This document shows positions 906 to 32,965 of a stretch of DNA of 37,303 nucleotides, piece by piece. Positions within the stretch are counted from its first letter, which is position 1; every line of letters begins with the position of its first letter. This stretch comes from a virus: positions 1-37,303 of IMG/VR virus record IMGVR_UViG_3300036832_000441; one strand, written 5' to 3'. A program made the translations under genes and the position numbers. The notes under the pieces were generated by a model that had not been told where the DNA came from, did not search any database, and was given only the letters and a program-made list of their open reading frames with translations.

Positions 906-1231
906 CCGACTGGCTCGACGAGCTGACGCCGGACGAGCGCGAGGGCTGGGATGAGTTCGTCGCGCACGTCCGCCGCGACGCGCTCACGAAGATCGACGAG
1001 TCAGCGTTCGTCGTCTCGCTCTTCCCGACCGGCGGCGAGCCCGACGTCAAGTACGCCGTCGAGCTCGGCCTCGCGATCCTGCTCAACAAGTCGATCCTCG
1101 TCGTCGCGATGCCCGGCGCCGTCATCCCGCCGAAGCTGCGCGAGATCGCCGACATCGTCGTCCACGCCGACGTCGACGTCGAAGAGGGCCGTCAGCTTGT
1201 CGCCGACGCGATGCGCGGGATGCCGCGGTGA
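902..1231 (+). CDS. Small Rossmann-like hypothetical protein
   Basis: A 109-residue protein starting at GTG 902 in a 4-nt overlap with the ParB-like gene. After an acidic N-terminus (WLDELTPDEREGWDEF) it alternates strands and helices: SAFVVSLFPTG, then KYAVELGLAILLNKSILVV, then REIADIVVHADVD. This pattern resembles the small alpha/beta fold of nucleoside 2-deoxyribosyltransferase-like and TIR-like proteins, where a chain such as ELG-AILL-K-I-VV is typical. No catalytic residues can be fixed, so that comparison is only a fold guess. The next reading frame also starts with a GTGA overlap at 1228, so the genes appear co-translated. Confidence 0.6.
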   Translation: MTDWLDELTPDEREGWDEFVAHVRRDALTKIDESAFVVSLFPTGGEPDVKYAVELGLAILLNKSILVVAMPGAVIPPKLREIADIVVHADVDVEEGRQLVADAMRGMPR

Positions 1232-1638
1232 CGCTCGACGCCGTCTTCACCAGCTCCGCGCTCGACGAGCTCGAACAGCGAGTCGTCGGCATCGTCGACG
1301 CCCGCCTCGAAGAACGCGGCATCGGCGCGCAGCGCCGCTGGCGCACCGTCGACGAAGCAGCCGCCGAGCTCGGCGTAACACCGAGCGCGTGCTCGATGAG
1401 CTCTTCGCTCACTTGCTTCTTCTTCGGGCCGGGCTTCGGGCCGGGCTTCGTCGCCGGGTCGGCGGCACGGATGACACGATCGACACGACGCAGCTCGTCG
1501 TCGATCAGGTCGAGCTCAAGCTTGACGCGCTGCCGTTCGAGCTGCAGCTCTGCTGCACGCTGCTCATCCACGACGAGGGCCTGGCGTACTCGCGCCACTA
1601 CGACCAGCTCTACCAGCACGGCTCCCCGATGCGGCTGA
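1228..1638 (+). pseudogene. Broken helix-turn-helix protein (N-terminal part only)
   Basis: GTG 1228 overlaps the upstream stop. The first ~50 residues look genuine: a coiled helix (LDELEQRVVGIVDARLEE) and then WRTVDEAAAELGVTPSA, the start of a MerR/excisionase-type helix-turn-helix. From about position 1386 the frame becomes a Ser/Arg/Thr run typical of a non-coding frame in GC-rich DNA, with an odd FFFGPGFGPGF stretch. The gene is therefore most likely cut near a small palindrome at 1368-1386 (GCTCGGCGT / ACACCGAGC). Normal excisionase-like proteins would continue another 20-60 residues in register. Confidence 0.5.
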
Positions 1639-2069
1639 TGCGGGTGTCGAACCTGCACCACGAGACGGCGGTCCGGAGCCTGTTCCTGCTGCAGGAGATC
1701 GAGCCGGACACGTACGAGCGGCTGGTCGCCAGGATCGGCGGCATCGACATGGCCGGGAAGCTGGGCCTCAACGACTACTTCCCGCGCGAGCTTCCTTTCA
1801 TGTTCAAGTCGTGGCTTGACTACCGCGAGCACCTGCTGGACACGCTCGTCGACGACGACTACCGGCCGGCGCTCAGACGCAAGTTCGCGATGATCGACCG
1901 CGGGTTGCCGCCGGGGTTCCGGCAGGAGGCGCGGGCGATCCAGGTGACTGGCATCCTCACCTGCGACTGGGAGGGCGCGAAGCTGGAGGCTTGGTACAAC
2001 TCGCCGCAGGTCTGGAAGGAGCGGAAGGCGTGGCAAGACTCCAAACGCGCCCTGCTGGGAACGACCTGA
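1389..2069 (+). pseudogene. C-terminal remnant of a PAPS-reductase-family (IbrA/DUF3440-like) protein
   Basis: From about 1560 to 2069 this frame is clearly coding. It carries the block YSRHYDQLYQHGSPMRLMRV, then ETAVRSLFLLQEIEPDTYER and LVARIGGIDMAGKLG, which resembles the conserved C-terminal part of IbrA-type proteins (PP-loop ATPase/PAPS reductase superfamily fused to DUF3440). The family normally has an N-terminal PP-loop with SGGKDS; no such motif is found in any frame upstream, so the nucleotide-binding half is missing. GTG 1389 is the first usable start after the plausible junction, but residues before about 1560 (an Leu/Arg-rich run) look non-native. The intact ParB gene that follows is the usual partner (IbrB type). 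Confidence 0.5.
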
Positions 2070-3480: not shown

Positions 3481-4995
3481 GTGACCACCGTCGAGGTTGA
3501 GCCGACCAGGTGGCGGCCGTACTCGCACGGCACGCGGGCGGTGCACTTCGCCTGGTGGTGCCGCGAGCACTGCATCCAGAGCGTGGGCCAGTTCGCGTCG
3601 AAGCCGCTGACCTTGGAGCCGTGGCAGCTCGAGATGATGGGCGAGGCGCTCGCCGAGACGGAGGAGCAGCAGACGTACTGGCTGATCACGGCGCTGGTGA
3701 TCCCGAAGAAGAACGGGAAGACGTCGCTGCTGGCGGCGTTCGGGCTCTACCACCTGATCGAGGACGACGAGGGCACCCCGGAGATCCTCCTCGCGGCCGC
3801 CACCAACCGGCAGGCCGGACGGTTGTTCGACACGGCGGTCAGGTTCGTGAAGCGGGACCCGTGGCTCGCGTCACGGCTCGTCGTTCGTGAGCAGTCGGGT
3901 GTGATCGCGCGCGCCGACGGGTTCGGCAGCCTGATCCGCATCTCGGCCGACTCCGGCGCCGCGTCCGGGTACGGCCCGTCGCTCGTGGTCGCGGACGAGC
4001 TCGCCGACTGGCACACGCCGCGCCGCCGGCGGACGTGGGCGAACATCGCGACCGCCGGGCAGATGATCCGCGACGTCGTCCACGTCTTCATCATCTCGAC
4101 GGCCGGGGAGCCGACCGAGCGGGTCACCGGCCTGCTCGGCCAGATGATCGACCGCAACGAGCTCGACGGCGACGTCGAGCGTGTCCACCGTGCGCTGACG
4201 ATCTCGCGGAACCATCCGGGCAAGACGCTGATCTACAACTACGACGCCCGCACCCTCGACCCGTTCGACATGGACGCAATAAAGGCCGCAAATCCTGCCA
4301 GCTGGGTGACGAGGGAGCGGCTGCTGGAGACGGCGAGGTCGCCGGCGCTGACGCACGGCCGATTCCTGCAGCTGCACGGCTGCGTGTGGACGACGGCCGA
4401 GGGCAGCCTGCTCGAGCTGGAGGACTGGCGCAAGGCCGCCGTCCAGGCGAAGCTCGCCGACCGCGACGCGATCACGCTCGGGTTCCGGGGCGCCGACACC
4501 TGCTCCTTGGTCGCCTGCCGCCGCGACGACAGCGTCCTCTTCCTGCTCGAACAGTGGCAGCCGGCGGCGGACGAGCTCGTCGACCCTGAGGACGTCGACG
4601 ACGCGGTGCTGCACGCGATCGGCACCTACCAGGTCGCCGCGCTGTTCGCGGCCGCGACGCCGGAGTACGCGACGCTGGTCGACTCGTGGCGGAAGGTGCT
4701 CGGCACCCGCCGGGTCGTGGACGTGCCGGTCGACCGGCCCTCCCCGAAGACGGCGTCGATCACGCAGCGGTTCCGCGCCGACACGCTGCAGGAGCGGCTG
4801 CACCATTCCGGCGACCGCCGGTTGGACGCGTCGATCGCCGGCGCCAGGATCGCCCGCAGCCGCAACCAGCCCTACGTCGTCTCCGACGAACGGCAGGACA
4901 CGCCGGTGTCCGGCTGCCACGCCGCGATGCTGGCCTGGGAGGCGAACATCATTTCCCCCGCGTACACGCGAAAATCTGGATACTCCTTCCTGTAG
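3481..4995 (+). CDS. terL: Terminase large subunit
   Basis: The 504-residue packaging motor starts at GTG 3481 after GGAAG. The ATPase domain has a Walker A-like VIPKKNGKTS (about 73-82) and Walker B LVVADELADW (about 168-177, acidic pair D172/E173). The coupling region IISTAGEPTER follows. The C-terminal RNase H-like nuclease starts near residue 330 (ITLGFRGADTCSLVACR). In most relatives the first nuclease motif reads GFDGS with a metal-binding Asp; here that position is Arg, although an Asp follows three residues later. The protein cuts concatemeric DNA and pumps it into the prohead through the portal encoded next. Confidence 0.93.
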   Translation: MTTVEVEPTRWRPYSHGTRAVHFAWWCREHCIQSVGQFASKPLTLEPWQLEMMGEALAETEEQQTYWLITALVIPKKNGKTSLLAAFGLYHLIEDDEGTPEILLAAATNRQAGRLFDTAVRFVKRDPWLASRLVVREQSGVIARADGFGSLIRISADSGAASGYGPSLVVADELADWHTPRRRRTWANIATAGQMIRDVVHVFIISTAGEPTERVTGLLGQMIDRNELDGDVERVHRALTISRNHPGKTLIYNYDARTLDPFDMDAIKAANPASWVTRERLLETARSPALTHGRFLQLHGCVWTTAEGSLLELEDWRKAAVQAKLADRDAITLGFRGADTCSLVACRRDDSVLFLLEQWQPAADELVDPEDVDDAVLHAIGTYQVAALFAAATPEYATLVDSWRKVLGTRRVVDVPVDRPSPKTASITQRFRADTLQERLHHSGDRRLDASIAGARIARSRNQPYVVSDERQDTPVSGCHAAMLAWEANIISPAYTRKSGYSFL

Positions 4996-20884: not shown

Positions 20885-21232
20885 ATGCCGGACCTGCCGG
20901 TCACGGTGAACCTACGCGCCTACCGAGGCGACACATGGGCGCAGACGTTCCGGTTCATCCACGACGACGTGCCGATCGACCTCACCGACGCCGCCGTCGC
21001 CTCCTGGGCCGAGAGCCCGGAGGGCTGCTGGCAGCTCGTGGCGGCACCGGCTGACGACGGCCTGGTGACGATCTCGATGCCCGACCCGCCGTTGGACGCG
21101 AACCCGTACAGCTACGACGTCGAAGTCACGAACCCCGACGGCACCATCACGACCTGGGTGCGCGGCCGCCTCACCGTCGAGCAGGACGTCACCAACGCCG
21201 GCGAGCTCTCCCTGAACGGGGCCGGGCCATGA
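20885..21232 (+). CDS. Tail/baseplate beta-domain protein upstream of fibre
   Basis: A 115-residue protein. ATG 20885 is preferred over GTG 20882 because it is spaced for a leaderless transcript. [20 protein letters not shown], then [12 protein letters not shown], is the motif seen in small BppU-N-like domains in front of phage fibres ('GDT......dg.pvDLTga.v...'). The rest is a beta-sandwich ending in [15 protein letters not shown]. It overlaps the large fibre gene by 4 nt and probably helps attach or trimerise it. Confidence 0.65.
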
Positions 21233-24200
21233 GCTCAAGCGTCGAGGTGATCCGCGACACGAACGTGATCGAGGTCAAGTCCGGCGGCCCCGTCGGCCCG
21301 CCCGGCCCGCAAGGGCCGCAAGGCGACCAGGGCGACCAGGGCGCCCAGGGCGACCCCGGCCAGCAAGGCCCGACCGGGCAGACCGGCGCCACCGGCGCCA
21401 CCGGGGCGAAGGGCACCACCGGCGCGGTCGGCTCCCCGGGCCCGGCCGGCCCGACCGGCCCGATCGGCCCGACTGGCCCGACCGGTCAGCAGGGCACGCA
21501 GGGGGCGAAGGGAGATCCAGGCGCTGCCGGGGTGCAGGGCCCGGAGGGCCCGACCGGCCCGCAGGGCGCGGCCGGCACCGGCATCAACATGAAGGGCAGC
21601 GTCCCCACCGTCGCCGACCTGCCGCCGGCCGCCGCCGACGGTGACGCGTACATCGTCCTGTCGAACGGGCACCTGTGGGTGTGGGAAGCGTCAGGCTGGT
21701 TCGACTCCGGCCCGATCGTCGGGCCGCCCGGCCCCACCGGCCCGCAAGGCCCGCAAGGCAACGTCGGCGCGATCGGCCCAACCGGAGCTCAGGGCCCGAT
21801 CGGCCTGACCGGGGCGCAAGGCGCGAAGGGCGACCCCGGCTCGCAAGGCGCGAAGGGCGACCCCGGCACGCCGGGCGCGACCGGCCCCACCGGGCCGACC
21901 GGCGCCACCGGCGCGCAGGGCCTGACAGGCGCCACCGGCCCTGCCGGAGCTCAGGGCGCGAAGGGCGACAAGGGAGACACCGGAGCGACCGGCCTCACCG
22001 GCGTCCCCGGCCCCACCGGCCCCGCAGGAGCAACCGGTCCGCAAGGCGTCAAGGGCGATCCCGGAGCAACCGGCGCCACCGGGCCGACCGGACCTGCCGG
22101 CGCCACCGGGCCCGCCGGTCCGACCGGCCCGAAAGGACTCGACGGCGCCCCCGGCACCGACGGCGCCCAAGGCCCGAAAGGCGACCCCGGCGCGCAGGGC
22201 GCGAAGGGCGATCCCGGCACGCCGGGTGCGACCGGCCCTACCGGGCCGACCGGCGCCACCGGCGCCCCCGGCCCCACCGGGCCCGCAGGAGCAACCGGCC
22301 CGCAAGGCGTCAAGGGCGACCCGGGCGGGTTTTACCCGCTGGCCGCCGGCGTCACGGCGGGCGCGACGACGGCGACGCTTTCGTCCACGCTCGGACTCAA
22401 GGTCGGACTGTTCGTCGCCTTCTCCTACGGGCTGCAGAACTGCGAGGTCCGCCGCATCACTGCCATCTCCGACCCGGTGGTGACGGTGTCGGCGGCGTTC
22501 AAGTTCAACCACACGTCGGGCGATCAGGTATCTCCGGTGCCCGCGAATATCGTCACCTGGGAGTCCTATGGGGCCAAGGGGGACGCCGGGGCGACGGACA
22601 ACTTCGTCAACCTTCGCAACGCGCTGCTCGACCAGCAGGTTCACACGCTCCCGATAGTCGGGGTGGGCGAAGGCAGCGTGGCGGCGTACGGCACCTCTCG
22701 CCCCCTGTGGGCGAACGACTACAGCGTTGTTCAGAGAACCTGCCTCACCCCGAGGAGCTGGGCGCTGAACAACCTGCTCGGGGGTTGGCAAGACGGCCGC
22801 CCGTGCCAGTACCTGCTTACGGCCGCGGGAAACTACAGCACCGTCACGTTCAACAGTGCGGCGGGCACGTTCAACACGGCGAGCGGCGACGTGAACGGAG
22901 TCGACGCCGAGGTCCAGTTCTACGCCCAGGGCGAAGGGGCCGTTCTCCCCACCGGGATCGAGGAGGGGCGAAAGTACTGGATCGTCTCCAAGGACGGCTC
23001 CAACAACACCAAGATCGCGCTAAAGCGCGCCGACACCGGCAACCCAGTCACGTTCACCGATAACGGCTCTGGGACGATCAGATGTTTCAGCGCCGGCATG
23101 TCAAGGATGCTCTGGTCGGACTGCTATCTGAGCGGCGGCAATACGGCAGGGCTGAGCGGAGTCATGCTCTATGCGCAGCAGCCGCAAATGAGTTCCCGCG
23201 TTCGCGTCCAGGATTTCCCTGTCGTCGGGGTCACCGTCGCCGCGGTGCAGGGCTATATCGAGGAGTGGATGATCTTCAACTGCGGGGTCGGTCTCGAGTG
23301 CTCCAGCTGCTCGATCTTCACAGCTCACGCCTGCGACATCGAACAATGCGACCAGCAGGTCACGTTCGTCAAGGACCGTAGTCCCGACGTGCTCGTTGCC
23401 GCCAACTTTTCTATCTCCTTTACGGGCGTGACGCACATGGAGGGGACCGGTGGCGGGACGGCGAGGAAACAGACGCTCTATCGGTTGGGCACGGCCGCGC
23501 TCACTGGGGGCACGTACACGATCACGTTCAAGGGCGTGACGACGACACACAACTGGAACGACGATCCCGCCACCGTAAAGGCCGCGTTGATCGCCGGTAA
23601 TCCCAACGTCACCACGAACGACATCGACATCTACGGCTCTGTCGATTACGTCGCCTCCCGGGCGGCAGGCACCGCCCCCGTCTATACGAGGACGGGGATC
23701 AACCTGAACCAGCAGGCGTTCATCTTCGACTTCGACCAGCCGACGGGCCAGTACAGATGGACGAGCATGAAGAGCTCCCTGATCTCAACGAGCAGCACCG
23801 GTCTTACCGGCGGCACGGTCTCCACCGTCCTGAACCTGCCGTGGAGTCAGGCGTTTCTCGTCAACCAGGCCCAGGCGGTCACGGTCCAGAACGTCTACGG
23901 GGCAGGCCTGAGTTACCCCAGCAGCACGTACGGAGTGCCGTGGTTCAACTACCTGCCCCTCATCCGTTTCGAGGGGGAGGCCGTCGATCCCACGGTCGGG
24001 ATGAGCAACACGTTCGCGCTCGACATGGCGCTGAACACGGACCCGAACGGAATCGCTATCGCGTTCGACCCACTGTACGAGCCCGGAAATCACTTCGTCT
24101 GGAACAACTACGAGAAGACACTCAGCGGATCGCAGCTTGTCCGGGTGTCAACGGCGACGAATTACCGGCGGTTCGGCCCCTACAACAGCGGCAACCCGAA

Positions 24201-25254
24201 CGCTCAGGCGTTGCGTTACACCGGCATGGGTGGACGCGCCCTCAGCCTGGGTGCTGGGAGCGCAGATCCGCACCTGCAGCTGATGGCGGGCTTCGGCCAG
24301 ACGCCGGACATGCAGCAATGGCAGGCCTATGGCGGCACGCCGATGGCTGGTGTCACGAAGGACGGCTACCACTACGCGCCCCGGCTGTACGTCGGCTCGA
24401 GCATCACCTCGACGCCGATCATCCTCTCCGGCACCGGCGCCCCTGCGGTTGCCGCCCCGGTCGGGTCGCTGTACCTGCGCCTCGACGGCGGCACCGACAC
24501 GACCCTGTACCGCAAGGAGACAGGCGCAGGCGCGGCCGGCTGGGTTGCCACCGCGGCCGGCGGCGGCGGAGGTCCCGCCGTTGCGCTCGTGGAGCAGATG
24601 ATCGCGGTGGCGAGCGGGGTGGTCGTGATGTCCTGGGGGTCGTTCCCGGTCGCGCAGACGGACTTTATGGGGTCGGGTTCTAACGGCCGCAAGTATTCGG
24701 TCAAGACCGACCTCACGAACGCGACACAGATCCGACTGCACCTGGACCTGGACGGTCCGCCTGCTATCAACAAGACCGTCTCGTCCGTGGACATTGCGGC
24801 GAACACGCTCACGGTCACGGCTCATGGCCTGGTCGCGAACCAGATCGTGACGATCAACGGTGCGCCTGCCCCCGGCGGTCTCGTTGTCGGCACCCAGTAC
24901 TACGTCCTTGTCGTCGACGTGAACACGATCCAGCTTGCGGCCGCGGCGGGCGGGGCGGCGATCGACCTCACGAGCACAGGGACTTCAGTGACCGTCTGGA
25001 CGGCCACCTTCGGCCTCCAATACTCGACCGACAATGGCGCGAGCTACAAGTGGATGGACGACTCGGCGATAGCGACGACGCCTGCCGGGGTCGTCGTCAT
25101 CGTGGGGCCTCCCGTGGGCAGCAAGGTGTCGCCGTGGTTCACGCTGACCCCGGGCGCCAAGATCGTTGACGTGGTGCTGAAAGTGGTCGGTCAGTACGGG
25201 GACGGGGCGACGGCGGTGGCGCCGTTCAACTCGGTGAAGACGCAAGTCAAGTAG
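21229..25254 (+). CDS. Large tail fibre/tailspike with collagen-like repeats and beta-helix
   Basis: A 1341-residue protein, the longest here. After a short anchor (about 1-18) come Gly-X-Y collagen repeats (about 19-118), a small lectin-like insert ([20 protein letters not shown] to SGWFDSG), and a second collagen block (about 165-366). About 440 onward is a pectate-lyase-3-type beta-helix, starting [16 protein letters not shown]. The distal part has a 'HGL..NQIV' and 'GTQYYV' domain typical of fibres (near residue 1200) and a beta-rich tip. Trimeric fibre for host binding; the beta-helix could degrade a surface polysaccharide, but no catalytic residues can be assigned. Codon third positions are less GC-biased from about 22.5 to 24.4 kb, which suggests acquisition from elsewhere. 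Confidence 0.85.
21286..22327 (+). repeat. Collagen-type repeat DNA, two blocks
   Basis: Imperfect 9-bp GGn-nnn-nnn units coding Gly-X-Y fill 21286-21590 and 21721-22327, split by a non-repeat insert. Longer duplications lie within the second block: the stretch around 21823-21910 is nearly repeated at 22191-22264, and that around 22011-22060 at 22271-22326. Such DNA can change length by slippage or recombination. Confidence 0.85.
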
Positions 25255-29230: not shown

Positions 29231-29263
29231 TCCGGGGCCCGGTTTCTGCGGCCCGGCCCCGGA
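29231..29263 (+). terminator. First hairpin between late cluster and integration module
   Basis: TCCGGGGCC (29231-29239) is the exact reverse complement of GGCCCCGGA (29255-29263). It starts just after the stop at 29229. There is no T-tract, so it is a weak or factor-assisted terminator, or an mRNA 3' stabiliser. Confidence 0.5.
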
Positions 29264-29269
29264 GGATCT

Positions 29270-29311
29270 GCTGGTCGGCCGCCACTCCCCCCCGGCGGCC
29301 GACCGGCCCCC
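29270..29311 (+). repeat. 42-bp hairpin element, copy 1
   Basis: GGTCGGCCGCC (29273-29283) and GGCGGCCGACC (29294-29304) form an 11-bp perfect stem around a C-rich loop. The whole 42 bp is the exact reverse complement of 36046-36087. This copy lacks the flanking A- and T-tracts that make the other copy a terminator. Confidence 0.85.
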
Positions 29312-29323
29312 CACCATGATCTT

Positions 29324-29373
29324 GAGCAGGCACGAGGGCGGGTGGCGTCTCCCGGGCGCCACCCGGCCTGCTC
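29324..29373 (+). terminator. Third hairpin, just before excisionase
   Basis: GAGCAGG (29324-29330) pairs with CCTGCTC (29367-29373), and inside it GGGTGGCG (29340-29347) pairs with CGCCACCC (29357-29364) around TCTCCCGGG. The outer stem ends five bases before ATG 29378, so it could also sequester the start of excisionase. No T-tract follows. Confidence 0.5.
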
Positions 29374-29377
29374 GCCT

Positions 29378-29662
29378 ATGACCGAGCGTCTGCTCAAGGC
29401 GCGTGAGGTCGCCGAGCTGCTCGGCCTGGAGTTGGCCACGGTCATGGATCGCTTCCAGTCCGGCGACCTACCGGGCTTCCGGCTGTACGGGCGCAAGGGC
29501 GCGCCGGTGCGGTTCCGGGCCTCGGAGATCGACGCCTGGCTGGACGAGCGTTGCCGCGTTAGGGTTGAGGGCGACAACGCACATGGCCCGGCACCGTCGA
29601 GACGGCCCGGGCCCGGCACGGGAGGTCAGTCCCACGCGTCGCAGACTCTACGAGGTGTCTGA
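29378..29662 (+). CDS. xis: Excisionase-like helix-turn-helix protein
   Basis: ATG 29378 is chosen because the conserved domain begins here: LLKAREVAELLGLELATVMD, then GFRLYGRKGAPVRFRASEID and AWLDE, a MerR-type winged helix (HTH_17) of recombination directionality factors. The remaining 35 residues are Pro/Gly/Arg-rich. It overlaps integrase by 1 nt (stop 29660-29662, ATG 29662). It probably binds attP/attL DNA and steers Int to excision. No Shine-Dalgarno sequence precedes it and a hairpin abuts its start, which suggests low or controlled expression. Confidence 0.75.
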   Translation: MTERLLKAREVAELLGLELATVMDRFQSGDLPGFRLYGRKGAPVRFRASEIDAWLDERCRVRVEGDNAHGPAPSRRPGPGTGGQSHASQTLRGV

Positions 29663-30780
29663 TGCCTGCTGAGCAGCAAGGCTCGGTGTTCACCATGCGC
29701 GACGGCAAGCGCAAGGGCATCCGCTGGGTCGAGGACGGGGAGCGCCAGCAGAAGTCGGGGTTTCGGTCGGCGACCGAGGCGAGGAAGTGGTGGCGCGACG
29801 AGATCGCGTCCCGGCTGAACGCCGGCGTCTCGACCAGGGAGCAGACGTTGGAGGAGTTCTTCGAGGAGTACCTGGCCACGCACGGCGGCGCCGACCGGAC
29901 GAAGGCGAAGCTGCGGGAGGACATGGCCTCCGCGATCGCCGTGTTCGGCGAGAAGACGCTCCGCGAGCTGGAGGGCGGGAAGGGCCAGATCACCGCCTGG
30001 CTGGCGGCGCAAGCGGAGACGTCGCGGGCCAGGAAGCTGCGGGCGGTCAAGCAGGTGCTCAAGGCCGCCGCCGACTGGGACCGGATGCTCCGCAACCCGG
30101 CCCAGGCGCTCAGCGCCGCCGAGGTCCGCGCCGAGGAGATCGAGCCGTTCTCCGACACGGCCGAGGTCGACGCGTTCGCGGAGGAGCTGCCGGTGCCGTG
30201 GGCGCAGCTCGTCGTCTTCGGCACCGAGACCGGCCTGCGCCCGGAGGAGTGGGCCGCGCTGGAGCGCCGGGACACGGACACCCGCGCCGGCGTCGTCTCG
30301 GTCGCCCGCACCTACACCGTGGCCGGTGGGCTCAAGCACTACGCCAAGACGAGCCGGTCGCGCCGGGTCGTGCCGCTGACCGACAGGGCGCTCCAGGCGC
30401 TCGACGAGCTCCCCGCCCGGATCGACACGCCGCTGCTGTGGTCGAACGCGAAGTACGGGCACACGCGAGGGCCGCGCGTCCACCTGAGCCTGCCGAACTT
30501 CCGCAACCGCATCTGGCGGCCCGGCCTGCAAGCGGCAGGTCTCCAGCGCAACGGGGCGATCTGGCTGCCGTCGCCGTACGCGATGCGGCACACGTTCGCG
30601 GCCTGGGCGCTGGAAGCGAGCTTCGACGCCTTCGAGCTGAGCAGGCTGATGGGCACGTCCGTGGCGATGATCGACAAGACCTACGGCCACCTCGTCCGCG
30701 ACCATGCCGAGCGTGCACGCGACAGGCTCAACCAGCGCCCCTCAATCGTGGTCGAAAAAACGGAAGAGGGCCGTGGCTGA
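29662..30780 (+). CDS. int: Tyrosine integrase
   Basis: A 372-residue site-specific recombinase. The N-terminal arm-binding part (about 1-55: KGIRWVEDGERQQKSGFRSA, then TEARKWWRDE) and the core-binding helices (about 60-145) precede the catalytic domain. R193 lies in TETGLRPEEWAAL, the beta-strand Lys is K229 (YAKTSRSRR), R309 lies in PYAMRHTFA, and the nucleophile is Y341 (DKTYGHL). The usual His of HxxR is Tyr306, and the H/W position after LMG is Thr332. It acts on the attP just downstream. The gene end holds the 17-bp A-tract repeat and overlaps the next start. Confidence 0.92.
   Translation: MPAEQQGSVFTMRDGKRKGIRWVEDGERQQKSGFRSATEARKWWRDEIASRLNAGVSTREQTLEEFFEEYLATHGGADRTKAKLREDMASAIAVFGEKTLRELEGGKGQITAWLAAQAETSRARKLRAVKQVLKAAADWDRMLRNPAQALSAAEVRAEEIEPFSDTAEVDAFAEELPVPWAQLVVFGTETGLRPEEWAALERRDTDTRAGVVSVARTYTVAGGLKHYAKTSRSRRVVPLTDRALQALDELPARIDTPLLWSNAKYGHTRGPRVHLSLPNFRNRIWRPGLQAAGLQRNGAIWLPSPYAMRHTFAAWALEASFDAFELSRLMGTSVAMIDKTYGHLVRDHAERARDRLNQRPSIVVEKTEEGRG
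30750..30766 (+). repeat. 17-bp A-tract repeat, copy 2
   Basis: An exact second copy of the sequence at 3457-3473. It lies in the last codons of integrase and supplies GGAAG upstream of GTG 30773. Confidence 0.85.
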
Positions 30781-31063
30781 CGCCCTCCCGCGTCGATCAG
30801 GGCTCGCTCTTGAATGGGTGGGTGTCCTTGTCGAGCGGCTGGGCTTGTGGGTGCAGCGGGTGGCCGCGGACGTGCAGTGGGGCACCGTGGCTGAGCCATC
30901 GATCACCTGCCCGCGCTGCGGCCGGACGTCGTACAACCCGAACGACATCCGAGAGGGCTACTGCGGCTACTGCCACGACTGGACGTCGGTGACGCCAGAA
31001 AAACGCCAGAACGTCTTGGGACCGGGCGACGTAGCCATGCGGCACGACCGAGGGGAATCGTGA
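30773..31063 (+). CDS. Zinc-ribbon protein overlapping the attP arm
   Basis: GTG 30773, after GGAAGAGGG, gives 96 residues and overlaps the int stop by 8 nt. After a hydrophobic helix (LALEWVGVLVERLGLWVQRV) it has a zinc ribbon: CPRCGRTSYNPNDIREGYCG, then YC, with pairs C..C and C..C. The C-terminal VTPEKRQN is coded by the left attP arm repeat, so this protein's end is shaped by the recombination site. Similar short ribbon proteins are common in actinobacterial phages; function unknown. Confidence 0.6.
   Translation: MADALPRRSGLALEWVGVLVERLGLWVQRVAADVQWGTVAEPSITCPRCGRTSYNPNDIREGYCGYCHDWTSVTPEKRQNVLGPGDVAMRHDRGES
30990..31012 (+). repeat. attP left arm repeat
   Basis: TGACGCCAGAAAAACGCCAG followed by AAC; matches 31247-31269 with a single A/C difference. 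Contains CGCCAGAA at 30993-31000 and 31004-31011, one helical turn apart. Confidence 0.8.
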
Positions 31064-31290
31064 GCAATCCCGCATGGCTAGCCCGGTTCCCGGGGTTCTC
31101 GCCTCGACCCGCCAGGGCTCGCCTTTCCGTCTGCCCCGCTTCACACGCGGGAGGTCGCTGGTTCGATCCCAGCCGCGCCCACTCCCCCGAAACACCTGCT
31201 AGGCCAGGGATTCCACGTGGAAAGGCGACCGCCGAGAAATCGGCGCTGACGCCAGAACAACGCCAGAACCTCCGGAGGCTGCTGCGATGA
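31060..31290 (+). CDS. Possible small frame spanning attP
   Basis: GTG 31060 overlaps the upstream stop as GTGA after GAGGGGA, and the stop overlaps the next ATG, which is how real genes here are joined. However, its middle is read through a tRNA fragment (GGRWFDPSRAHSPE is the usual nonsense translation of a T-arm), and its end (ALTPEQRQN) comes from the right arm repeat. If translated, integration would replace its N- or C-terminal part. More likely non-coding. Confidence 0.25.
   Translation: MSNPAWLARFPGFSPRPARARLSVCPASHAGGRWFDPSRAHSPETPARPGIPRGKATAEKSALTPEQRQNLRRLLR
31135..31181 (+). tRNA. 3' half of tRNA-Val(CAC), attP core
   Basis: CCCGC-TTCACAC-GCGGG (31135-31151) forms an anticodon arm with anticodon CAC (31142-31144). 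Variable bases AGGTC follow, then a T-arm GCTGG-TTCGATC-CCAGC (31157-31173), the 3' acceptor strand CGCGCCC, and discriminator A31181. No D-arm or 5' acceptor strand (expected GGGCGCG) lies upstream, so this is a partial gene, as in attP cores that match a host tRNA 3' end. Confidence 0.85.
31247..31269 (+). repeat. attP right arm repeat
   Basis: TGACGCCAGAACAACGCCAG followed by AAC; second copy of the arm repeat, 257 bp to the right of the first, on the other side of the tRNA core. Confidence 0.8.
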
Positions 31291-31415
31291 CGAAGGCGCA
31301 GCGGATCGCGCTCGATCACGTCGCGCTGCTCGCCGAGGAGTGCGCTCATCCGAGGCACGCGTCGATGACGCCGCTCGGCTCGCTCGTCTTGAGCGTGAAC
31401 GCGGGCTATGAGTGA
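31287..31415 (+). CDS. Small hypothetical protein (42 aa)
   Basis: ATG 31287 has CCGGAGG (31271-31277) well placed upstream. The peptide MTKAQRIALDHVALLAEECA, then HPRHASMTPLGSLVLSVNAG, looks natural and is the first frame after attP. No family is recognised. It may be the first gene of the early operon. Confidence 0.45.
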   Translation: MTKAQRIALDHVALLAEECAHPRHASMTPLGSLVLSVNAGYE

Positions 31416-31463
31416 CTGCAGCTCAACTTCGGCGGGCCGGTCTGGCACGCAAGCGGATGCGGC

Positions 31464-31739
31464 ATGAGCTACGGCACGTCACGGGTGATCGCGCTGCGAG
31501 CGCTCGACGGTGTCGGCGACGCGACCCTCGGCGAGTGGGAGCAGAAGGGCACGTACCCGATCCTGCACGTGCGGCGACGGCTGTCGGCAGCCGAGCAGAC
31601 GAGGTACGGCCTCAACGTCCGCGACATACGCGGCACGCGGGAAGAGCGGGAGCGGCTCGCGGCGCTGTCCGCGGCCGTGCCCGGCCTCGCGTCGCACCCG
31701 GAGATCTGGAGGCAGTTCGACGAAGGAGGTGGACGATGA
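31464..31739 (+). CDS. Small protein sharing the C-terminal module of the first ParB-like protein
   Basis: A 91-residue protein from ATG 31464 (no strong ribosome-binding site). Residues about 36-81 (VRRRLSAAEQTRYGLNVRDI to GLASHPEI) are nearly the same as the end of the protein at 54-905. The N-terminal 35 residues (SRVIALRALDGVGDATLGEW) are unrelated to it. Stop overlaps the next ATG. The shared module must be a functional unit or a recent recombination tract; it has no known name that I recognise. Confidence 0.6.
   Translation: MSYGTSRVIALRALDGVGDATLGEWEQKGTYPILHVRRRLSAAEQTRYGLNVRDIRGTREERERLAALSAAVPGLASHPEIWRQFDEGGGR
31569..31706 (+). repeat. 138-bp duplicated segment, copy 2
   Basis: Ungapped counterpart of 744-881, in frame. 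The 5' part is identical and the 3' part has drifted. Confidence 0.9.
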
Positions 31740-32059
31740 GCGAAGCAGGGTTCACCGAGGCAGAGCGGCGAGAGATGCTCGACGAGCTTGCGGTCATCGG
31801 AGCAAAGGCCGAGCAGATACGTGCCGAGCTCGTGAGCGGCGAGTACGGGGATTACGACGAGCCTGCCGGCGAGGACCTCATCGCGGCGTTCCACCGTGCC
31901 GACCCCACGCTCGGAGTGCGGATCGACGCGCTCGCCGACCTGCGCGCTGCAGGAGCACTAGGCGGCGGCGACGTGACCGTCCGCGACGCCGCGGACATCC
32001 TGCTCCGCATGACCAACGTCCTGCTGCCTACGTGGCGCGAGGACATCAGGAACGAGTGA
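31736..32059 (+). CDS. Early-region hypothetical protein
   Basis: ATG 31736 follows AAGGAGGTGG and overlaps the previous stop; the upstream part of this frame is not coding. The 107-residue product has an N-terminal helix (FTEAERREMLDELAVIGAKA, then EQIRAELVSGEY) and a C-terminal helical part (DVTVRDAADILLRMTNVLLP). No family is recognised; probably an early phage protein. Confidence 0.6.
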   Translation: MSEAGFTEAERREMLDELAVIGAKAEQIRAELVSGEYGDYDEPAGEDLIAAFHRADPTLGVRIDALADLRAAGALGGGDVTVRDAADILLRMTNVLLPTWREDIRNE

Positions 32060-32075
32060 CCGAGAGGAGGACGAG

Positions 32076-32729
32076 ATGAGCGAGACGGGCACTGATGTGG
32101 TGCAGCGGCCCGCGATGCCGGAGGAGCTGCTGGAGGTCCGGCAGCTCGGGGACTGGCTGGCGAAGGCGGAGCGTGACGACCGCAGCCCGGAGTCGCTCGG
32201 CGCGGCGGCGGCGCTGCGGACGTACTACGCCCGCCAGTTGTTCGGCGTCGAGAACCCGCTGGCCGCGAACGAGTTGTCGTTCCACAAGGGGCGGCTGATC
32301 CCGTCGACGAAGCTGCTGCGGGCGCTGGCGTCGAAGCACGGCTTCCGGGTCGTGTCGATCGAGTGCGACGACGTCCACTGCATCGCGGCGGTGATCCGGA
32401 TGGACACCGGCGAGGAGCTGGGCCGGTCGCTGTTCACGATCGAGATGGCGCAGCGGCAGGGCCTCGTCCGCGACGGCTCCGCGTACAAGAAGGTGCCCGA
32501 CCGGATGATGTGGGCCCGGGCGGCGAAACGGGCCCTGGACGAGTTCGCGCCCGAGGCGATGCTCGGCGTCGCCGCCCGCGACGAGGGCGAGTACGAGGAG
32601 CCGCCCGAGAGCTACGTCGAGGCCGAGCACGTCGAGCTCGAGCCGGAGCCGGACGAGCGCGAGCGGTGGGAGGCCGAGCACGAGTTCAGCCAGGACGACG
32701 ACATCCCGTTCACGGAGGAGGAAGCATGA
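32076..32729 (+). CDS. RecT-like single-strand annealing protein
   Basis: A 217-residue protein after GAGAGGAGG. The layout matches RecT-family recombinases: LADWL-type N-terminal helices, NELSFHKGRLIPSTKLLRAL ('i.v..Grp..sa.lm.al' segment), HGFRVVSIECDD, then GSAYKKVPDRMMWARAAKRA and LDEFAPEAMLGV, the 'P..M...RA.s...R...Pd...G' motif. The last 45 residues are an acidic tail ending DIPF-TEEEA. It would anneal ssDNA at replication forks or breaks. No exonuclease partner is seen next to it. Confidence 0.68.
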   Translation: MSETGTDVVQRPAMPEELLEVRQLGDWLAKAERDDRSPESLGAAAALRTYYARQLFGVENPLAANELSFHKGRLIPSTKLLRALASKHGFRVVSIECDDVHCIAAVIRMDTGEELGRSLFTIEMAQRQGLVRDGSAYKKVPDRMMWARAAKRALDEFAPEAMLGVAARDEGEYEEPPESYVEAEHVELEPEPDERERWEAEHEFSQDDDIPFTEEEA

Positions 32730-32965
32730 TCGAGCAAGACGAACGACTCGCGGCCGCGCAGGACAGGCTCGACCGGGCGCGGTACGCGGTCGCCGAACTG
32801 ACCAAGTCGTACCGGGTGATCAGCGACCTGCTCGCGGACGCGAAGGACCGCGAGCTCGCCGCGATGCTCGAGCTGGCCGACGCCCGCACCGAGCACAAGA
32901 TCGCCGACCTGCTCCAGATCACCGTGGAGCTCGACCCGACGGCGATCGCGGAGGCGGCGGCATGA
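32726..32965 (+). CDS. Small coiled-coil protein
   Basis: ATG 32726 overlaps the preceding stop after GGAGGAGG. The 79-residue product is one charged helix (LAAAQDRLDRARYAVAELTK, then DRELAAMLELADARTEHKIA) that should form a coiled coil. Translationally coupled on both sides; may assist the annealing protein, but there is no direct evidence. Confidence 0.6.
   Translation: MIEQDERLAAAQDRLDRARYAVAELTKSYRVISDLLADAKDRELAAMLELADARTEHKIADLLQITVELDPTAIAEAAA

What the first reader, a model, noticed from the sequence alone, without database searches (positions are those of the whole stretch)
30990..31269. Complete attP with tRNA-Val(CAC) core and paired arm repeats
A 47-bp tRNA 3' half with good anticodon- and T-arms sits midway between two 23-bp direct repeats that differ at one base, each containing two CGCCAGAA units 11 bp apart. 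It lies directly after a tyrosine integrase. This predicts both the host target (the 3' end of a tRNA-Val gene with anticodon CAC) and the Int arm sites.
Basis: partly seen in the sequence, partly recalled or inferred. Interest (0 to 1): 0.7.

Follow-up and report, generated by a model that had tools for sequence, protein, structure and literature searches.

The report
Phage attachment site targeting tRNA-Val(CAC)
This is the docking site with which a temperate phage of uncultured actinobacteria would insert itself into its host's valine tRNA gene; it is an ordinary kind of site, unusually complete and readable, and it points to one host family.

Summary
Window 31135-31181 is a tRNA 3' half from the anticodon stem to the discriminator base. 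It is flanked by two 23-bp direct repeats (22/23 identical), each holding two ACGCCAGAA units 11 bp apart, just after a tyrosine integrase and an excisionase-like gene. The unit ACGCCAGAA occurs exactly four times in the window, only here.

The 47-bp core equals, base for base, the 3' part of tRNA-Val(CAC) genes in 5 of 399 sampled Thermoleophilia genomes, all five in one family. Related integrases occur in 23 of 103 genomes of that family. Host 5' half plus phage core gives a full tRNA-Val in silico. Other elements have left tRNA-Val(CAC) scars in several actinobacteria. Relatives of this integrase share the attP plan: a half tRNA gene between pairs of short repeats spaced 11 bp (22 of 44 loci against 1 of 44 controls). 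Phage Baka, from a cluster with a tested attP, shows the same 11-bp pair.

Corrections: the core is not midway, and a small ORF lies between int and attP. One twist: the core points away from int, opposite to nearly all relatives and Baka.

New member of a known kind; modest interest. No lysogen was found.

The parts
29342..29662 (+). excisionase-like HTH protein (probable recombination directionality factor)
   Evidence: Pfam HTH_17 2.3e-10; PHROG excisionase 1.3e-9; NCBIfam excise domain below its cut-off; homologues upstream of int in most viral relatives
29662..30780 (+). tyrosine integrase, 372 aa, lambda-like
   Evidence: Pfam Phage_integrase 7.6e-9, PHROG integrase 1.2e-41; R193 near-invariant, K229, R309, Y341 conserved among 14 aligned integrases; model with N-terminal three-strand-plus-helix domain and Foldseek matches to Tn1549 Int and lambda Int
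30704..31063 (+). small zinc-ribbon ORF between int and attP; its 3' end overlaps the left arm pair
   Evidence: weak L37e zinc-ribbon match below cut-off; 87 bp 83% identical to Microbacterium phage Megan gene 82
30990..31012 (+). left (P) arm pair: two ACGCCAGAA units at 30992-31000 and 31003-31011, 11 bp apart
   Evidence: same geometry in relatives
31135..31181 (+). attP core: tRNA-Val(CAC) 3' half, 47 bp
   Evidence: exact match inside tRNA-Val(CAC) genes of 5 genomes
31140..31146 (+). anticodon loop TTCACAC, predicted strand-exchange (overlap) region flanked by the stem CCCGC/GCGGG
   Evidence: inference; scars of other elements in tRNA-Val(CAC) begin identity at about this point
31189..31199 (-). 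GCAGGTGTTTC, near-match to a motif (GCAGG[AG]nnTTC) concentrated in att regions of relatives; candidate accessory site, weak in the window
31211..31222 (.). perfect palindrome TTCCACGTGGAA between core and right arm; function unknown
   Evidence: 0.04 expected with up to 1 mismatch in the window; also near an integrase or its att region in L219 and L145
31247..31269 (+). right (P') arm pair: two ACGCCAGAA units at 31249-31257 and 31260-31268, 11 bp apart

Best explanation
30990-31269 is the attP of a temperate tailed phage. The integrase at 29662-30780 binds the two pairs of arm sites (ACGCCAGAA x2, one helical turn apart) with its N-terminal domain, and binds the anticodon-stem inverted repeat CCCGC/GCGGG with its core-binding and catalytic domains. 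It exchanges strands across the 7-bp anticodon loop with the same sequence in the host's tRNA-Val(CAC) gene. Integration rebuilds a full tRNA-Val from the host 5' half and the phage 3' half and leaves a 47-bp orphan copy at the other end; the HTH protein upstream of int would direct excision. Because the core points away from int, the rebuilt tRNA would sit at the 31182 side and int at the far end of the prophage. Shown: the sequence features, host identity, in-silico tRNA rebuilding, comparative architecture. Inferred: binding, exact crossover, excision role.
For: Exact 47-bp match inside tRNA-Val(CAC) genes in 5/399 Thermoleophilia genomes, all five in one family (5/103); no exact match to the inner 42 bp in a 396-genome phylum sample. 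23/103 genomes of that family carry related integrases. Host 5' half plus phage core yields tRNA-Val(CAC) by ARAGORN; the attP alone and the int-side junction yield none. Other elements use this tRNA: orphan tRNA-Val(CAC) 3' halves in G002, G276, G381, G369 and G457. Relatives with intact attP have half-tRNA cores and 11-bp-spaced pairs on both sides; exact 8-mer tandems at offset 11 in 22/44 att regions against 1/44 controls, other offsets near background. Baka, whose cluster attP was tested (PMC3706429), shows the same 11-bp pair and a tRNA half downstream of int. The Int fold resembles Tn1549 and lambda integrases.
Against: No integrated copy of this phage was found: its portal gave 0/103 in the host family (no positive control). 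No binding or recombination data exist. tRNA genes are conserved, so the match gives a host family, not a species. The record appears incomplete (about 6.5 kb missing relative to its sister G760).
Confidence: 0.94

Rival explanations
1. The paired repeats are not integrase arm sites but operators for another protein, such as the excisionase-like HTH protein or a repressor; only the core belongs to attP.
For: Excisionases also bind short direct repeats in attP (general knowledge); the left pair overlaps a small ORF; no binding data.
Against: Pairs lie on both sides of the core in intact relatives, mostly 235-257 bp start to start, and in Baka's cluster pairs of this kind are described as arm-type sites (PMC3706429). 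The Int model has the small N-terminal beta-sheet-plus-helix domain expected for arm binding.
Confidence: 0.05
2. The half tRNA is captured host DNA or a chimeric assembly of an attL or attR end, not a working attP.
For: The window is a virus record whose source is a contig of unknown completeness; a 47-bp repeat shared with the host can mislead short-read assembly.
Against: Both sides carry the same arm pairs in direct orientation with the geometry of relatives, which a host-phage chimera would not give; similarity to the sister phage flanks the module on both sides, at 29262 and from 32961.
Confidence: 0.02
3. The phage uses tRNA-dependent lysogeny: integration destroys the host tRNA and a phage tRNA replaces it.
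For: It is known in actinobacteriophages with attB in tRNA genes (PMC10865867).
Against: The core is 47 bp and rebuilds the tRNA in silico, unlike the roughly 10-bp cores of that mode; no phage tRNA-Val is found in the window.
Confidence: 0.01

Closest known systems
Cluster J mycobacteriophages (Omega, Baka): int - attP - tRNA-Leu, PMC3706429
   Same: attP on the 3' side of a tyrosine integrase, 44-bp core equal to a tRNA 3' half starting at the anticodon loop, pairs of direct-repeat arm sites on both sides; 11-bp pair spacing checked here on the right side
   Different: tRNA-Leu rather than tRNA-Val(CAC); unrelated arm sequence (TGCATACG); the Baka core points towards int, the window core away from it
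Cluster K mycobacteriophages (CrimD, Pixie), Giles, L5 attP sites, PMC3203893
   Same: paired arm-type sites flank a core shared with a tRNA or tmRNA gene; Pixie has a 47-bp core; direct orientation in L5 and Giles
   Different: attP lies 5' of int in Cluster K; CrimD uses tmRNA and inverted pairs; Pixie and L5 have additional sites
tRNA-dependent lysogeny phages (Fionnbharth), PMC10865867
   Same: tyrosine Int, attP flanked by paired arm sites, attB in a tRNA gene
   Different: short core that does not rebuild the tRNA and a phage tRNA gene; the window has a 47-bp rebuilding core and no tRNA-Val gene
Relatives found here in IMG/VR and Thermoleophilia genomes (L109-L124, L076-L100)
   Same: integrases up to about 47% identical overall, xis-int order, half-tRNA core, 11-bp arm pairs
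   Different: other tRNAs (Asp, Gly, Val-GAC, Arg, Pro, Thr, Ala, Met, Leu), other arm sequences, nearly always the opposite core orientation

Membership tests
Lambda/L5-type tyrosine-integrase attP in a tRNA anticodon arm | adjacent tyrosine recombinase with conserved catalytic residues | tested here: met
   R193, K229, R309, Y341 conserved; the usual HxxR histidine is Y306 in all 14 aligned integrases
Lambda/L5-type tyrosine-integrase attP in a tRNA anticodon arm | core identical to the 3' part of a host tRNA gene starting at the anticodon arm | tested here: met
   47/47 in five genomes
Lambda/L5-type tyrosine-integrase attP in a tRNA anticodon arm | integration rebuilds the tRNA gene | tested here: met
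   in silico only
Lambda/L5-type tyrosine-integrase attP in a tRNA anticodon arm | arm-type sites on both sides of the core | tested here: met
   sequence and comparison only; binding not tested
Lambda/L5-type tyrosine-integrase attP in a tRNA anticodon arm | Int N-terminal arm-binding domain | tested here: met
   predicted three-strand-plus-helix domain, residues 8-52, mostly pLDDT 85-92; fold only, function not tested
Lambda/L5-type tyrosine-integrase attP in a tRNA anticodon arm | recombination directionality factor gene nearby | tested here: met
   HTH_17/excisionase-like 29342-29662; activity not tested
Lambda/L5-type tyrosine-integrase attP in a tRNA anticodon arm | host architectural factor (IHF or mIHF) sites | tested here: inconclusive
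   motif GCAGG[AG]nnTTC enriched in att regions of relatives, weak in the window; the protein that would bind it is unknown
Lambda/L5-type tyrosine-integrase attP in a tRNA anticodon arm | demonstrated lysogen with attL and attR | tested here: inconclusive
   no prophage found (no positive control)
tRNA-dependent lysogeny | short (about 10 bp) core that does not rebuild the tRNA, plus a phage tRNA of the same isotype | tested here: not met

The most novel reading that the evidence does not exclude
Within this integrase group, attP behaves as a separable cassette: the tRNA target, which tRNA half is carried (3' in most, 5' in L114 and L116), and the orientation relative to int all change, while paired arm sites one helical turn apart stay fixed. 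The window would then be an attP flipped as a unit, placing int at the prophage end away from the rebuilt tRNA.
Probability: 0.35. Interest if true: 0.5.

Novelty: new member of a known kind. Interest (0 to 1): 0.3.

Why it matters
It assigns a host family to a phage of uncultured bacteria by an exact target match. It also shows that the attP of these phages can be read by eye: half a tRNA gene between two pairs of short repeats 11 bp apart. Across about 20 related integrases the arm sequence changes while the spacing does not. That is a ready data set for the unsettled question of how the integrase N-terminal domain chooses its arm sequence (PMC3203893 and PMC3706429 both leave it open), and these systems could serve as integration tools for Thermoleophilia.

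Tried and rejected
A DNA match of the attP region to isolated phages found only the zinc-ribbon ORF; isolated-phage integrases reach only about 25-28% identity in the listed hits. An exact scan of viral contigs for part of the core found nothing; the arm pattern found only two contigs in other contexts. Rfam gave nothing.

That the arms, and not only the core, are inverted relative to int looked convincing from L110 (TTCTGGCC there, CGCCAGAA here). A comparison with 12 relatives is weak (reverse complement better in 7, same strand better in 4), so only the core inversion is claimed firmly. L087 and L089 first looked co-directional; their sites also hold a possible tRNA 5' half and a second repeat pair, so they are left open; the tree still labels them so. 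The accessory motif partly overlaps hairpins after the tRNA in some relatives, so its function is not asserted. The terminator scan gave nothing firm in the window or in L110, L113 and L118.

A portal search for prophages in the host family was empty. Omega records were not held, so Baka was used as control. The target of the sister phage G760 was searched for and gave only short weak matches.

Full report
Observation. The window sequence shows the tRNA 3' half at 31135-31181 exactly as described, and the two 23-bp repeats with one difference. They are far above chance: best 23-base self-match 22 against a shuffle maximum of 19, and 28 of 32 against 23. CGCCAGAA occurs only in these four places. 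ARAGORN sees no whole tRNA here. The core is 122 bp from the left repeat and 65 bp from the right one, so not midway. A small zinc-ribbon ORF separates int from the site and overlaps the left repeats.

Genes. 29662-30780 is a tyrosine integrase. It has R193, K229, R309 and Y341 conserved among relatives, with tyrosine at the usual HxxR histidine. A model from 14 sequences has mean pLDDT 85, an N-terminal three-strand-plus-helix domain and a body that matches Tn1549 and lambda integrases. Upstream, 29342-29662 is an excisionase-like HTH protein that keeps its place before int in most viral relatives. The rest of the window encodes terminase, portal, scaffold, major head, tape-measure-like and baseplate-like proteins of a tailed phage.

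Host target. The 47-mer occurs with no mismatch in five of 399 genomes of the class of G002, whose source record is a Solirubrobacterales MAG and therefore Thermoleophilia. In the four genomes examined (G588, G406, G493, G688) it is the end of a complete tRNA-Val(CAC) gene with the usual 5' half; the fifth (G558) was not read further. All five lie in one family (5 of 103). A phylum-wide sample had only imperfect matches to the inner 42 bp. The same family holds integrases related to the window's in 23 of 103 genomes. Identity to the host gene starts at the anticodon stem and runs to the end of the tRNA. Joining host 5' half to phage core gives a tRNA-Val(CAC); the phage site alone and the int-side junction give none.

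The tRNA as a used target. In G276, G381, G369, G002 and G457 there are extra 3' halves of tRNA-Val(CAC) without a 5' half: the scars of other elements. In G276 the intact and scar copies are 12 kb apart, and the stretch between carries a different integrase that the window's Int does not detect. Identity of scars begins at about the edge of the anticodon loop, which fits strand exchange there.

Architecture of relatives. Scanning viral contigs with an alignment of these integrases gave relatives up to 46% identical. Downstream of int, most have a tRNA half gene: 3' halves of Asp, Gly, Val(GAC), Arg, Pro, Thr, Ala and others. Intact sites mostly have two short units 11 bp apart on each side, 235-257 bp start to start between pairs. 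Across 44 loci, an exact 8-base repeat at offset 11 was present in 22 att regions and in 1 control region, with other offsets near background. Phage Baka, in whose cluster attP function was tested (PMC3706429), has TGCATACGGCCTGCATACG, again 11 bp. So the geometry is shared and the arm sequence is not.

Orientation. In the window the tRNA half reads in the same direction as int; in nearly all relatives and in Baka it reads towards int; L003 is like the window. On an integrase tree the window sits with relatives whose sites, where a 3' half was found, are convergent (97/91 support for the ten-member group), so an inversion of the site relative to int is the simplest reading. The arm units look inverted too in some comparisons (L110), but the overall test is weak. 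The consequence is that the rebuilt tRNA would border the right arm and int would lie at the other end of the prophage.

Module exchange. The sister phage G760 is about 74-86% identical over most of the window but has no DNA similarity across 29262-32961. There it has a tyrosine integrase that the window's Int did not detect, and its own repeat pairs (TGAGACAC, spacing 12-13 by eye). The integration module is thus exchanged as a block. G760 also suggests that the window lacks about 6.5 kb.

What is shown and what is not. Shown: sequence, host identity, comparative plan, in-silico tRNA rebuilding. Inferred: Int binding to the repeats, the exact crossover in TTCACAC, excision by the HTH protein, and host species. 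No lysogen was found (without positive control).

Place among known systems. The kind is well known: paired arm sites around a tRNA or tmRNA core in Cluster J, Cluster K, L5 and Giles phages (PMC3706429, PMC3203893). It is not tRNA-dependent lysogeny (PMC10865867), because the core rebuilds the gene. The finding is a new, clean member with a host assignment; it is not a new mechanism.

Noticed in passing
L116 and L114, about 4100-4150: The attP of these two related phages carries the 5' half of tRNA-Gly(CCC), not the 3' half, with the same 11-bp arm units; a promoter-like TANNNT lies about 12 bases before the L116 half tRNA, as before host genes. The L116 43-mer is exact in G484 and G540. Use of 5' halves is described as seldom met in bacteria (PMC8371274).
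   Followed up: partly
window 31211-31222; L219:13568; L145:3897: The perfect palindrome TTCCACGTGGAA occurs at only three distinct places in about 1.2 Mb of fetched DNA, each just after an integrase or in its att region, with different integrases. It resembles a parS variant (from memory); function unknown.
   Followed up: partly
att regions of L099, L107, L110, L112, L116, L117, L118, L122; window 31189-31199 (-): Motif GCAGG[AG]nnTTC: 9 of 11 matches in 1.2 Mb lie in att regions of this integrase group; motif score far above shuffles. Candidate accessory-protein site, partly overlapping hairpins after the tRNA.
   Followed up: partly
window 29262-32961 against L219:11342-15520: The integration module is replaced as a block in a sister phage that is otherwise about 74-86% identical; the sister's attP has TGAGACAC repeat pairs and no recognisable tRNA half.
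   Followed up: partly
L036:2593-6847: Three orphan tRNA-Val(CAC) 3' halves and one intact gene within 4.3 kb of one genome, a stack of attachment scars.
   Followed up: no
window 21229-25254: 1341-aa ORF with collagen repeats; ARAGORN's tRNA-Pro at 23600-23697 (-) lies inside it and is probably false.
   Followed up: no
window 951-2069: ORF matching a phosphoadenosine phosphosulfate reductase phage family (PHROG, 2.9e-19).
   Followed up: no
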